Assembly: GCA_016870155.1 (NCBI GenBank)
Contig: VGCE01000005.1
Location: 62,001-126,000 of the forward strand
Length of the DNA stretch: 64,000 nucleotides
DNA from: Actinomycetota bacterium
GTDB taxonomy: Bacteria; Actinomycetota; Thermoleophilia; Miltoncostaeales; Miltoncostaeaceae
Direction: 5' to 3'
Position 1 is the stretch's first letter. Every line of letters starts with the position of its first letter. Shown piece by piece: positions 36,717 through 39,280 of this stretch. The translations under genes were made by a program, and so were the position numbers. The notes beneath the pieces were generated by a model, which was not told the origin of the DNA, searched no databases, and worked only from the letters and a program-made list of their open reading frames with translations.

Positions 36717-37313
36717 GTGGCGAGGAAGACGCGCAAGACGCCCACGGCGATCCGCGTGGGCGACCGTGACCTGCTCTGGGACTACGCCCGCCTCGCGCGC
36801 ATGTACGGCATCCAGCTGCTCGGGGTGTCGGTGGCGCTCGTGGTGGTCTCCATCATCCTCGAGGCGACATCGGAGGATGGCTGGTCGTGGTGGTGGCTCG
36901 GCACGCTGACCGCGATGACCGGCATCACCGGCCTGGTCTTCTTCCCGATCCTGCGGGTGTGGCTGCGCAGGGGCGGCCTGCCATCCATCCGCCTGCCCGA
37001 CGCGCAGCCCGCCGAGGGGCGGCGCATGCTCGCCGCCGCGCCCGGCGACTGGCGCAGCTTTGCCGCCATCGTGGCCATCCTGCTCTTCATCTCGGCCGCC
37101 GCCACCCTGCTGTTCCTCGTCGCGGTCCTCGGCCGCGGCGGCACCGCCGAGGGCGTGGTCATCGGCGTGCTGCTGGCCTGGGGCTTCGTCACCCTCGAGG
37201 ACGCCCGGCGCATCGCCCGCGCCCAGATCGAGCAGAAGCGCACCTACTGGGCCGCCGCCCGCCGCCCATGGGGCGCCGGCAACCGCCTGGTCTTCACCGT
37301 CCCACGCGGGTAG
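36717..37313 (+). CDS. Four-helix membrane protein of unknown function (198 aa)
   Basis: 198 residues from GTG 36717. Basic start (ARKTRKTPTAIRVGDRD), helices at about 30-48 and 58-76, a loop with RLPDAQPAEGRRMLAAAP, helices at about 112-135 and 140-158, then a charged helix DARRIARAQIEQKRTYWAAA. The same length and topology as the protein at 9932-10528, including the charged helix directly after the fourth segment. No known domain. Confidence 0.75.
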   Translation: MARKTRKTPTAIRVGDRDLLWDYARLARMYGIQLLGVSVALVVVSIILEATSEDGWSWWWLGTLTAMTGITGLVFFPILRVWLRRGGLPSIRLPDAQPAEGRRMLAAAPGDWRSFAAIVAILLFISAAATLLFLVAVLGRGGTAEGVVIGVLLAWGFVTLEDARRIARAQIEQKRTYWAAARRPWGAGNRLVFTVPRG

Positions 37314-37332: not shown

Positions 37333-37390
37333 CACCCCGGTGTCAGGCACTTAACCGAACTCGCTTGGTTAAGTGCCTGACACCGGGGTG
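37333..37390. repeat. 58 bp hairpin element with perfect 24 bp arms
   Basis: Left arm 37333-37356 and right arm 37367-37390 are exact reverse complements; the spacer is GAACTCGCTT. The arms contain GTGTCAGGCACTTAACC and its complement, which is distinctly AT-richer than the surroundings. It begins 20 nt after the stop of the membrane gene and ends before the trxB promoter. It may act as a terminator, but the length and perfection suggest a REP-like or MITE-like element. I recall the TGTCAGGCAC core from dispersed palindromes in other genomes; unverified. Confidence 0.85.
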
Positions 37391-37406: not shown

Positions 37407-37437
37407 TAGCCTGCTACTCCATACCGGAGGGGGGTAT
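37407..37437 (+). promoter_or_regulatory. trxB promoter with CsoR/CstR-type operator
   Basis: A possible -10 box TAGCCT (37407-37412) is followed by ATACC-N7-GGTAT (37421-37437). The inverted repeat encloses the trxB ribosome site GGAGGGG (37426-37432). Pseudo-palindromes of the form ATACC...GGTAT with a G/C-rich centre are typical CsoR-family operators, and a gene of that family is the fourth gene of this operon (38996-39280). Confidence 0.55.
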
Positions 37438-37439
37438 CG

Positions 37440-38402
37440 GTGGGTGATGTGAACGAGGTGGTCATCATCGGCAGCGGGCCCGCGGGGCTGACGGCCGCCA
37501 TCTATGCCGCGCGGGCCGGGCTGGAGCCGTTGGTGATCGAGGGCTACGGGGCCGGCGGGCAGCTGATGATCACCACCGATGTCGAGAACTACCCCGGGTT
37601 CCCCGACGGCGTCCAGGGGCCGGAGATGATGCAGATGTTCCGTGCGCAGGCCGAGCGGTTCGGCACGCGATTCATCACGGCCGACGTCAGCAGCGTGGAC
37701 TTCTCGGAGCGCCCCTTCCGGGTGTGGGTGGGCGACGACGAGCACGTGGCGGACGCCGTGATCGTGTCCACCGGTGCGTCCGCGCGGTGGCTCGGCATCG
37801 AGGGCGAGGCCCGGATGATGGGCCGCGGCGTGAGCGCCTGCGCCACCTGCGACGGGTTCTTCTTCAAGGACAAGCCGGTGGTCGTGGTGGGCGGCGGCGA
37901 CACCGCAATGGAGGAAGCCCTGTTCCTCACCCGCATGTGCGAGGGCGTCACCATCGTCCACCGCCGGGATGAGTTCCGGGCGTCGGCCATCATGGCGCAG
38001 CGCGTGCTCGACAACCCGAAGATCACTGTGCGCTGGAATTCCGTGGTGGAGGACGTCGAGGGCGACACCGTGGTGACCGGCGTGGCGGTGCGCGACGTGC
38101 TCACCGGCGAGGAGGAGGTCATCCCGGCCGCCGCGATGTTCGTGGCCATCGGCCACCAGCCCAACACGGCGCTGTTCGAGGGCCTGCTCGACATGGATGA
38201 CGAGGGCTACCTGCGCACCACGCCGGGCAGCACCTGCACCAACATCGAGGGCGTCTTTGCGTGCGGGGACGTCCAGGACACCGTCTACCGGCAGGCGGTC
38301 ACCGCCGCCGGCACCGGATGCATGGCGGCGATCGACGCCGAGAGGTGGCTCGAGGCCCAGGAGGCCGGAGCCGGGGATCACGCGGGCGCGCACGCCGACT
38401 GA
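37440..38402 (+). CDS. trxB: Thioredoxin reductase
   Basis: 320 residues from GTG 37440 (GGAGGGG 7 nt upstream). FAD site GSGPAGLTAAIYAARAG (11-27), NYPGFP, redox pair in CATCDG (about 134-139), NADPH site VVGGGDTAMEEAL, and the second FAD motif GVFACGDVQD. Low-molecular-weight TrxB type. Passes electrons from NADPH to thioredoxin, encoded 12 nt downstream. The C-terminal tail is slightly long and acidic/His-containing. Confidence 0.95.
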   Translation: MGDVNEVVIIGSGPAGLTAAIYAARAGLEPLVIEGYGAGGQLMITTDVENYPGFPDGVQGPEMMQMFRAQAERFGTRFITADVSSVDFSERPFRVWVGDDEHVADAVIVSTGASARWLGIEGEARMMGRGVSACATCDGFFFKDKPVVVVGGGDTAMEEALFLTRMCEGVTIVHRRDEFRASAIMAQRVLDNPKITVRWNSVVEDVEGDTVVTGVAVRDVLTGEEEVIPAAAMFVAIGHQPNTALFEGLLDMDDEGYLRTTPGSTCTNIEGVFACGDVQDTVYRQAVTAAGTGCMAAIDAERWLEAQEAGAGDHAGAHAD

Positions 38403-38995: not shown

Positions 38996-39280
38996 GTGGC
39001 CACCACCGCGTCCACGCCGCCCACCCGCGAGCAGATCAAGGTGCGGCTGCGCCGGGCCGAGGGGCAGCTGCGCGGCGTGCAGCGCATGCTCGACGAGAAC
39101 GCGGCCTGCGAGGACGTCCTGGTGCAGCTGGCAGCCGTGACCGCCGCCCTCGACCAGGTGGGGCTTCACCTCATCGGCGAGCGCCTGCGCCAGTGCCAGC
39201 AGGCGGACGGCACCATGTGCTCCGAGGAGCTCGAGCAGGGCCTCTCCACCCTGCTACGCCACACGCGGCTTTCCCGGTAG
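38996..39280 (+). CDS. CsoR/FrmR/RcnR-family repressor, CstR-like cysteine pattern
   Basis: 94 residues from GTG 38996, 4 nt after the previous stop. All-helical DUF156 fold: REQIKVRLRRAEGQLRGVQR, then C38 and C67 in the sensing positions (spacing 29). The histidine expected at +25 in the copper sensor CsoR is replaced by R63, so a Cu(I) site is unlikely; the two-cysteine pattern matches the persulfide sensor CstR. H58 and C75 are extra. It probably represses its own operon through the ATACC...GGTAT site at 37421-37437. A formaldehyde or metal role is the alternative. Confidence 0.85.
   Translation: MATTASTPPTREQIKVRLRRAEGQLRGVQRMLDENAACEDVLVQLAAVTAALDQVGLHLIGERLRQCQQADGTMCSEELEQGLSTLLRHTRLSR

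What the first reader, a model, noticed from the sequence alone, without database searches (positions are those of the whole stretch)
37333..37390. Perfect 24 bp inverted repeat, 58 bp, between membrane gene and trxB
The arms match without a single mismatch and are AT-richer than their surroundings, which is far beyond a normal terminator. The TGTCAGGCAC core suggests a dispersed REP/MITE-type palindrome. If repeated in the genome it would be a non-autonomous element; it also sits where the trxB -35 region would be and could insulate or modulate that promoter.
Basis: seen in the sequence. Interest (0 to 1): 0.55.

Follow-up and report, generated by a model that had tools for sequence, protein, structure and literature searches.

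The report
Mobile DNA hairpin beside trxB
The perfect palindrome in front of the thioredoxin reductase gene is one of about two dozen copies of a small hairpin element scattered through this uncultured actinobacterium's genome, and it was most likely spread by a transposase-like protein whose gene lies between two copies of the same hairpin arm.

Summary
In detail: 37333-37390 is a perfect 24-bp inverted repeat with a 10-nt loop. The genome (1.81 Mb) holds 50 copies of the arm (reversed-sequence control 0): 21 short inverted pairs of 56-96 bp, one 709-bp pair enclosing an HuH/Y1 transposase gene of the RAYT kind, two arms around a resident UDG gene, and 4 solos. The trxB copy is absent at this place in 19 of 19 other species of the genus. 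Ten copies of 71 bp share a diverged but homologous spacer between near-invariant arms, as in REPINs. Copies sit at gene ends, half of them between convergent genes, with no target duplication beyond 2 nt. In 8 species a RAYT lies beside the same ferredoxin gene; its flanking arm type differs between species and is each genome's commonest of three types counted. But 9 of 20 genus genomes lack a detected Y1_Tnp gene, and two of these carry many copies. The arms lack the GTAG tag of classical REPs and resemble the terminal repeats of 'TIRYT' transposases. This is a new family of a known kind. Orthologous copies that differ in spacer orientation or arm type hint at rewriting in place, not shown. 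Effects on trxB are untested.

The parts
37334..37389 (.). whole element (56-bp class), ACCCC...GGGGT; with one further matching base on each side the perfect palindrome is 37333-37390
   Evidence: boundaries from comparison with 22 other pairs in the genome; sequence
37334..37356 (+). left arm ACCCCGGTGTCAGGCACTTAACC, the commonest arm (36 of 46 arms compared)
37339..37350 (+). arm core GGTGTCAGGCAC; cores beside other RAYTs fit GGKGNCAGNCMCC, this arm fits 12 of those 13 positions (T instead of the last C)
   Evidence: comparison by eye
37357..37366 (.). spacer/loop GAACTCGCTT; similar to the other three 56-bp copies (GAAAGCGTTC, GAAGGCGTTC, GAAGGCCTTC)
37367..37389 (-). right arm, exact reverse complement of the left arm
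36717..37313 (+). upstream ORF, 198 aa with hydrophobic stretches, no Pfam family; 20 nt lie between its stop and the element
37407..37412 (+). TAGCCT, possible -10-like TANNNT hexamer upstream of trxB; noted by eye, weak
   Evidence: sequence comparison; no promoter called
37421..37437 (.). ATACCGGAGGGGGGTAT, imperfect palindrome found (up to 3 mismatches) in front of trxB in 19 of 19 other species; looks like a CsoR-family operator
   Evidence: the operator reading is recalled, from no call
37440..38402 (+). trxB, thioredoxin-disulfide reductase
   Evidence: TIGR01292 405 bits, cut-off 343

Best explanation
The palindrome is a short, non-autonomous, REPIN-like mobile element. Two identical 23-24-nt arms stand in inverted orientation around a small spacer. 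It belongs to a family mobilised in trans by a RAYT/TIRYT-type HuH tyrosine transposase whose own gene is bounded by the same two arms (709-bp parent unit, genome contig C3:216123-216831). Inferred mechanism, by analogy with IS200/IS605 and TnpA-REP: when the strand is single (lagging strand or cruciform), the two arms pair into a hairpin, the transposase recognises the folded arm (core GGTGTCAGGCAC) and cuts and joins single strands through its tyrosine, and a copy ends up in another intergenic spot without duplicating the target. Shown here: dispersal, the link to the RAYT gene, the pairing of the arms, homologous spacers, absence at the same site in related species, location at gene ends, no target duplication beyond 2 nt, and a match between the RAYT's arms and the commonest of three counted repeat types in 8 species. 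Inferred: the transposition reaction itself, strand specificity, and any effect of the hairpin on trxB.
For: 50 arms in 1.81 Mb with zero control hits. By position they make 21 short inverted pairs of 56-96 bp, the RAYT pair of 709 bp, a pair 987 bp apart around a UDG gene (which I read as two solos), and 4 solos. The RAYT gene lies between its arms (C3:216347-216676, minus strand, within 216123-216831) and its stop codon lies within the downstream arm. It matches Y1_Tnp at 45.8 bits, cut-off 23, and NCBIfam REP_Tyr_transpos at 78.6 bits, cut-off 80. The N-H-x-H residues and Y...NP are invariant in 9 aligned RAYTs of the genus. The ten 71-bp copies have homologous spacers (187 of 250 matches to their consensus; 300 shuffles treated alike: mean 124, max 140), while 36 of 46 arms are letter-identical. 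The palindrome is missing before trxB in 19 of 19 species. Of 22 pairs with two called neighbours, 11 lie between convergent, 9 co-directional and 2 divergent genes; none lies wholly inside a called gene, though 5 overlap the called end or start of one by 16-20 nt; one 2-nt target duplication among 23 pairs. A RAYT sits beside the ferredoxin gene in 8 of 18 loci examined; in those 8 species its arm type is the commonest of three types counted. A second RAYT in the same genome has its own, different repeat.
Against: No transposition was observed. In the genus 11 of 20 genomes have a Y1_Tnp match and 9 do not; among the 9 are G014 and G007, with 28 and 26 core hits, and G016 with 11. G014's RAYT site is closed up; G007 (87% complete) gave no proper match for that locus; G016 is 65% complete. 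So copies can outlive the RAYT, or another enzyme serves. The RAYT score is just under the NCBIfam cut-off. Most tested copies are old: 12 of 14 short-pair sites tested (of 21) hold a paired copy in at least one of five relatives (my reading). In G002, G003, G004 and G018 the matching repeat count is small (5, 8, 9, 7) and 3, 3, 5 and 3 of these are the RAYT's own flanks. In G005 the margin is 19 to 13. The third pattern is one base longer than the other two.
Confidence: 0.9

Rival explanations
1. It is a fixed local regulator or transcription terminator/insulator of the upstream gene and trxB.
For: It forms a very stable hairpin 20 nt after the upstream stop codon; family members favour gene ends, half of them between convergent genes.
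Against: Absent at this site in 19 of 19 congeners that keep the gene order; no terminator called; the same sequence occurs at about 25 unrelated places. A secondary effect on read-through is not excluded.
Confidence: 0.07
2. It is a MITE of a conventional DDE transposon.
For: Inverted repeats, short length, many copies.
Against: One 2-nt target match among 23 pairs. The gene found between the same arms is an HuH/Y1 enzyme. Spacer and arms behave as in REPINs. I did not search the genome for DDE transposases.
Confidence: 0.03
3. The family is no longer mobile: relics inherited vertically and kept because the hairpins help the host (for example as barriers between convergent genes).
For: Many sites are shared between species. 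A solo arm beside the UDG locus is nearly unchanged in 7 of 10 species examined (decayed in G006, no core found in G019 and G001). Copies persist in G014, where no Y1_Tnp gene was detected.
Against: Paired copies at the trxB, L014 and L033 sites were seen only in this species among those examined (L033 alignments are ambiguous). Remnants or internal deletions occur at 6 of 70 site-by-species cells (my reading), so sites are also lost.
Confidence: 0.2

Closest known systems
TIRtron / TIRYT (TIR-associated tyrosine transposase) and their dispersed TIR families, Di Nocera et al. 2013 (PMC3733652; passages read)
   Same: HuH/Y1 transposase gene between long inverted repeats unrelated to GTAG REPs; the repeats also occur elsewhere in the genome, often as dimers; repeats may overlap the gene's end.
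   Different: Motif shared by some of their TIRs is GGGGWSAS; here the corresponding stretch reads GGTGTCAG (one change). Other RAYTs of the same genus do have GGGGTCAG beside them. The word Actinobacteria occurs 0 times in that paper's main text.
REPIN (REP doublet forming hairpin), Bertels and Rainey 2011 (PMC3116915; passages read)
   Same: Inverted pair of short ends, hairpin, spacer more variable than the ends, extragenic, linked to a RAYT, solos as a minority.
   Different: Smaller population (21 short pairs against 430 doublets reported in P. fluorescens SBW25), no GTAG tag, some spacers only 10 nt.
TnpA-Y1 class 2 proteins, Quentin et al. 2018 (PMC6006769; outline, abstract and sections 12 and 15 read)
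   Same: HuH plus Y...NP signature; low-copy gene; repeats at both sides in several subclasses.
   Different: Their subclass 2.1, which they say probably corresponds to TIRYT, has a C-terminal HTH domain and no REP found; this protein is 190 aa with only Y1_Tnp detected.
IS200/IS605 (IS608-type) insertion sequences
   Same: Y1 HuH chemistry, sub-terminal hairpins, no target duplication (the last recalled).
   Different: Two non-identical Y1 genes in the genome, dispersed hairpins; the IS200 equivalog model was not reported for this RAYT at E 0.001.

Membership tests
REPIN | Two REP-like ends in inverted orientation able to form one hairpin | tested here: met
   21 short pairs plus the RAYT pair; 44 of 50 arms in pairs if the UDG pair is counted as solos
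REPIN | Many dispersed extragenic copies, ends more conserved than spacer | tested here: met
REPIN | Linked RAYT gene flanked by the same repeat | tested here: met
REPIN | Excision/insertion events in reads | not testable with these tools
   no reads available
classical REP (GTAG-tagged) | GT[AG]G tetranucleotide at the foot of each palindrome | tested here: not met
   no GT[AG]G on either strand of the arm
TIRtron/TIRYT | HuH/Y1 transposase gene bounded by long TIRs unrelated to GTAG REPs | tested here: met
TIRtron/TIRYT | GGGGWSAS motif in the TIR (shared by some, not all, TIRs in the paper) | tested here: not met
   GGTGTCAG, one mismatch; 10 of 80 wider relatives have GGGGWSAS on both sides, 0.6 expected from shuffles
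TIRtron/TIRYT | TIR copies elsewhere as singles, dimers or groups | tested here: met
RAYT (NF047646) | NCBIfam equivalog cut-off of 80 bits | tested here: inconclusive
   78.6 bits; the second RAYT of the genome 89
TnpA-Y1 subclass 2.1 | C-terminal HTH (Bac_DnaA_C, HTH_23/28) | tested here: not met
   only Y1_Tnp found by Pfam (E 0.001) in 190 aa
DDE-type MITE | Target-site duplication | tested here: not met
   one 2-nt match among 23 pairs

The most novel reading that the evidence does not exclude
The element population is rewritten in place: at long-lived insertion sites shared between species, the repeat is replaced or converted so that its arm type follows the resident RAYT and its spacer can be flipped. 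In G012, whose RAYT has GGTGACAGGCACC arms, 4 of the 14 short-pair sites tested (11 readable there) carry at least one arm with the GGTGACAGGCAC core in the junction where G000 has GGTGTCAGGCACTT arms (L103, L012, L014, L034; the boundary is clearly identical only at L103). At L034 the spacers of G014 and G007 are 25 of 25 identical only when one is inverted. A RAYT would then act as a sequence-homogenising enzyme on fixed sites and not only as an inserter.
Probability: 0.25. Interest if true: 0.65.

Novelty: new member of a known kind. Interest (0 to 1): 0.4.

Why it matters
It shows, in an uncultured actinobacterium whose nearest RAYT relative in the named collection is a metagenome bin, a full REPIN-like system built on a TIRYT-like arm: parent unit, offspring, solo relics, absent and remnant sites, and species-specific arm types. 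The genus offers a natural series (same RAYT locus in 8 species, at least four arm types, presence or apparent loss of the RAYT) for asking why such populations persist and how enzyme and repeat change together.

Tried and rejected
Composite transposon carrying a DNA-repair gene: the arms at C2:82793 and 83779 enclose a UDG-family gene (PF03167). Close UDG orthologues occur in 7 other species and a partial one in G011; in G007 the gene lies next to the same right-hand flank. Of these stretches one (G005, another arm type) has a core on the left side of the gene; the others have a right-hand core only or none. So I read the arms as separate solos around a resident gene; the G005 left core speaks a little against that.

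Fixed terminator, Rfam RNA: no terminator called; Rfam gave 7 hits, all far under their gathering scores, 6 of them microRNA hairpins. Phage origin: 10 pattern hits but no relative of the RAYT by tblastn, and no exact arm, in viral contigs. Plasmid relatives of the RAYT: 22 records, all under 60% identity.

Hits set aside: 8 of the 57 GGTGTCAGGCAC cores in the own genome (four tandem units at C2:51622-51696, and C2:52923, C4:118380, C9:12437, C13:7597) are not among the 50 arms. Paper search by arm sequence: 130 papers, 25 listed, none of the listed titles about repeats. Searches for REPIN, RAYT, TIRYT, RAREFAN and actinobacterial terms showed no description of this family in the listings.

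Occupancy table: of 70 cells (14 short-pair sites by 5 relatives), by my reading: 25 hold a paired copy of the same or a near type, 4 a G012-type arm, 6 a remnant or internal deletion, 17 no element, 18 undetermined (contig ends or no match). L033 alignments may be paralogous. The window site was examined separately in 19 species.

Spacer orientation was compared at six sites: three show a flip, L103 does not, L038 and L037 are unclear.

Full report
Observation. Window 37333-37390 is a perfect 24-bp inverted repeat with a 10-nt loop, the longest of 15 listed for the window, folding at -68.5 kcal/mol, z = -11 against 200 shuffles. It has 60% G+C against 72% for the window. The exact core TGTCAGGCAC occurs in the window only in its two arms.

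Copies. In the window's own genome (1,811,387 bases, 16 contigs, 97.83% complete) GGTGTCAGGCACTT occurs 44 times, reversed control 0; CCGGTGTCAGGCACTTAACC with up to 3 mismatches occurs 50 times, 41 exact and 9 with one mismatch, control 0. Reading them gives 21 short inverted pairs (ten of 71 bp, four of 56 bp including this one, seven others of 58-96 bp), a 709-bp pair around a transposase gene, a 987-bp pair around a UDG gene, and 4 solo arms. Of the 46 arms in these 23 pairs, 36 are the identical 23-mer ACCCCGGTGTCAGGCACTTAACC. The ten 71-bp copies share a diverged spacer (187 of 250 matches to consensus; 300 shuffles treated alike: mean 124, maximum 140), so for this class the doublet with its spacer is the unit that was copied.

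The enzyme. A search for Y1_Tnp found two genes in the genome. One lies inside the 709-bp pair. It is a 190-aa HuH protein (PF01797 45.8 bits; NF047646 REP-associated tyrosine transposase 78.6 bits, just under the cut-off of 80). By sequence, the PDB search gave only weak hits: Y1 transposases and TnpA-REP 4er8 (E about 0.3), with two RuBisCO small-subunit chains at similar E-values. Its stop codon lies in the downstream arm. The second Y1 gene is flanked by a different repeat, TCGGTGACAGTCACC, which has 126 places at up to 2 mismatches, many counted on both strands because the core is nearly palindromic.

Absence at this site. The upstream ORF-trxB neighbourhood was found in all 20 genus members. 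None of the other 19 has the palindrome there; 18 of 19 have no related core, and G008 has a single different core, GGTGTCTGACACC, in an intergenic region of about 1.2 kb. In G014, G007, G013, G006, G001 and G015 only 39-45 bp separate the end of the upstream-gene alignment from the trxB start. In five others (G011, G016, G012, G005, G019) an unrelated repeat (GGGTTCGTCCGGGTT/ACC...CGGGGCGG) sits in the same region, so this spot is variable and I cannot point to the exact pre-insertion sequence.

Other sites. Joined flanks of 14 of the 21 short pairs and of the UDG pair were looked up in five relatives, and 53 junction stretches were read. Paired copies of the same or a near type occupy 25 of 70 site-by-species cells, G012-type arms 4, remnants or internal deletions 6, no element 17, undetermined 18 (my reading). 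Twelve of 14 copies are shared with at least one relative, so much of the population is old; the trxB copy is among the lineage-specific ones. Remnants such as ACCCCGGTG or ACACCGGGG at otherwise closed sites look like deletions within the palindrome.

Placement. With a simple codon-usage gene caller of my own, 11 of 22 pairs with two called neighbours lie between convergent genes, 9 between co-directional and 2 between divergent genes; none lies wholly inside a called gene, though 5 overlap a called gene end or start by 16-20 nt. Many abut a stop codon within a few bases. I have no background count of intergenic types for this genome, so enrichment is not tested. No target duplication was seen beyond one 2-nt match among 23 pairs.

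RAYT and arm type across the genus. Y1_Tnp matches occur in 11 of 20 genus genomes. At the SirB-like gene/ferredoxin locus a RAYT match is present in 8 of 18 loci examined (G000, G011, G012, G005, and beside the ferredoxin gene in G002, G003, G004, G018), not found in 9, and not assessable in G015, whose stretch ends at the ferredoxin gene. Of the 9, G014, G006, G001 and G009 have only 76-85 bp there; G016, G019, G013 and G010 have 650-924 bp that I did not examine. G007 and G017 gave no proper match for the locus. The arms at the RAYT differ: GGTGTCAGGCACTT in G000 and G011, GGTGCCAGGCACTT in G005, GGTGACAGGCACC in G012, GCTGACAGGCACC in the G002 group. Genome counts of the patterns GGTGTCAGGCAC, GGTGCCAGGCAC and GSTGACAGGCACC, written T/C/A: G000 57/2/0 (8 of the 57 are outside the family), G011 30/2/1, G005 3/19/13, G012 3/7/11, G002 0/0/5, G003 1/2/8, G004 1/0/9, G018 0/0/7. 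In 8 of 8 the RAYT's type is the commonest of the three; in the last four, 3, 3, 5 and 3 of the A hits are the RAYT's own flanks. Against a simple rule, G007 and G014 have 26 and 28 T-type cores with no Y1_Tnp match, and G015 has 87 C-type cores while its detected RAYT is flanked by GGTGACAGTCACC.

Wider relatives. The nearest is an uncultured actinobacterium bin (LaPlata-b_bin-1680; same contig number and length as G011's RAYT contig), then Gaiellaceae, Solirubrobacterales and further actinobacterial bins, then many phyla. Of the 80, 13 have a GGKGNC[A/T]GNCMCC core in their flanks (0.05 expected from shuffles), 10 have GGGGWSAS on both sides (0.6 expected), and 1 (the G011 record) has the exact T core. 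I derived the GGKGNCAGNCMCC pattern from the genus first and then applied it here; the arm of the window fits 12 of its 13 positions.

What it is. By anatomy it works like a REPIN: a copied doublet of inverted ends served by a RAYT. It is not a classical GTAG REP. The nearest published kind is the TIRtron/TIRYT with dispersed TIR families (PMC3733652, passages read), although the GGGGWSAS motif is met only with one mismatch (GGTGTCAG). Quentin et al. (PMC6006769, outline, abstract and sections 12 and 15 read) found no REPs for their subclass 2.1, which they say probably corresponds to TIRYT; the present protein lacks a detected HTH tail, so I leave the subclass open. I saw passages of PMC3116915, PMC8266576 and PMC8049555, and only search listings of the other papers.

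Effect on trxB. Unknown. Fifty nt lie between the element and the trxB start, and 31 nt between it and a conserved operator-like palindrome. A CsoR/RicR-family gene (PF02583 74 bits) follows trxA, so regulation by that repressor is plausible; this part is inference.

Unexplained. Spacer orientation differs between species at the same site: L034 (G014 against G007, 25 of 25 flipped against 18 unflipped), L009 (G000 against G011, 23 against 18) and L005 (G000 against G007, 18 against 13), while L103 keeps one orientation in 5 species; L038 and L037 are unclear. Passive inversion between perfect repeats is the plain reading. A solo arm beside the UDG locus is kept almost letter for letter in 7 of 10 species examined (G000, G013, G005, G016, G007, G014, G011), decayed in G006 and not found in G019 and G001.

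Noticed in passing
window 37421-37437 and 39008-39280: Operator-like ATACCGGAGGGGGGTAT before trxB, found at up to 3 mismatches in 19 of 19 other species, and a CsoR/RicR-family repressor gene after trxA; suggests a repressor-controlled trxB-trxA operon.
   Followed up: partly
L032 (G000:C2:239076-239402): Second RAYT-family gene with its own dispersed near-palindromic family TCGGTGACAGTCACC, 126 places at up to 2 mismatches.
   Followed up: partly
L067, L069, L071, L072, L086 (region before trxB in G011, G016, G012, G005, G019): Another repeat, GGGTTCGTCCGGGTT/ACC...CGGGGCGG, in the same intergenic region of five relatives, twice in two of them; a similar piece lies beside the copy at C1:441232.
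   Followed up: no
L149 and L150 (site L034 in G014 and G007): Same insertion site, spacer identical in 25 of 25 bases only after inversion; weaker flips at L009 and L005.
   Followed up: partly
L166, L168-L171, L163, L165: Solo arm beside the UDG locus, nearly unchanged in 7 of 10 species examined although flanks differ.
   Followed up: partly
G015 (contigs): 87 GGTGCCAGGCAC cores, many closely spaced and at contig ends; the RAYT detected in this genome has a different flanking repeat.
   Followed up: no
L096 1023-1096 (G000:C2:51622-51696): Four tandem 21-bp units with GGTGTCAGGCACC, set aside as lacking the TTAACC part of the arm; not analysed further.
   Followed up: no
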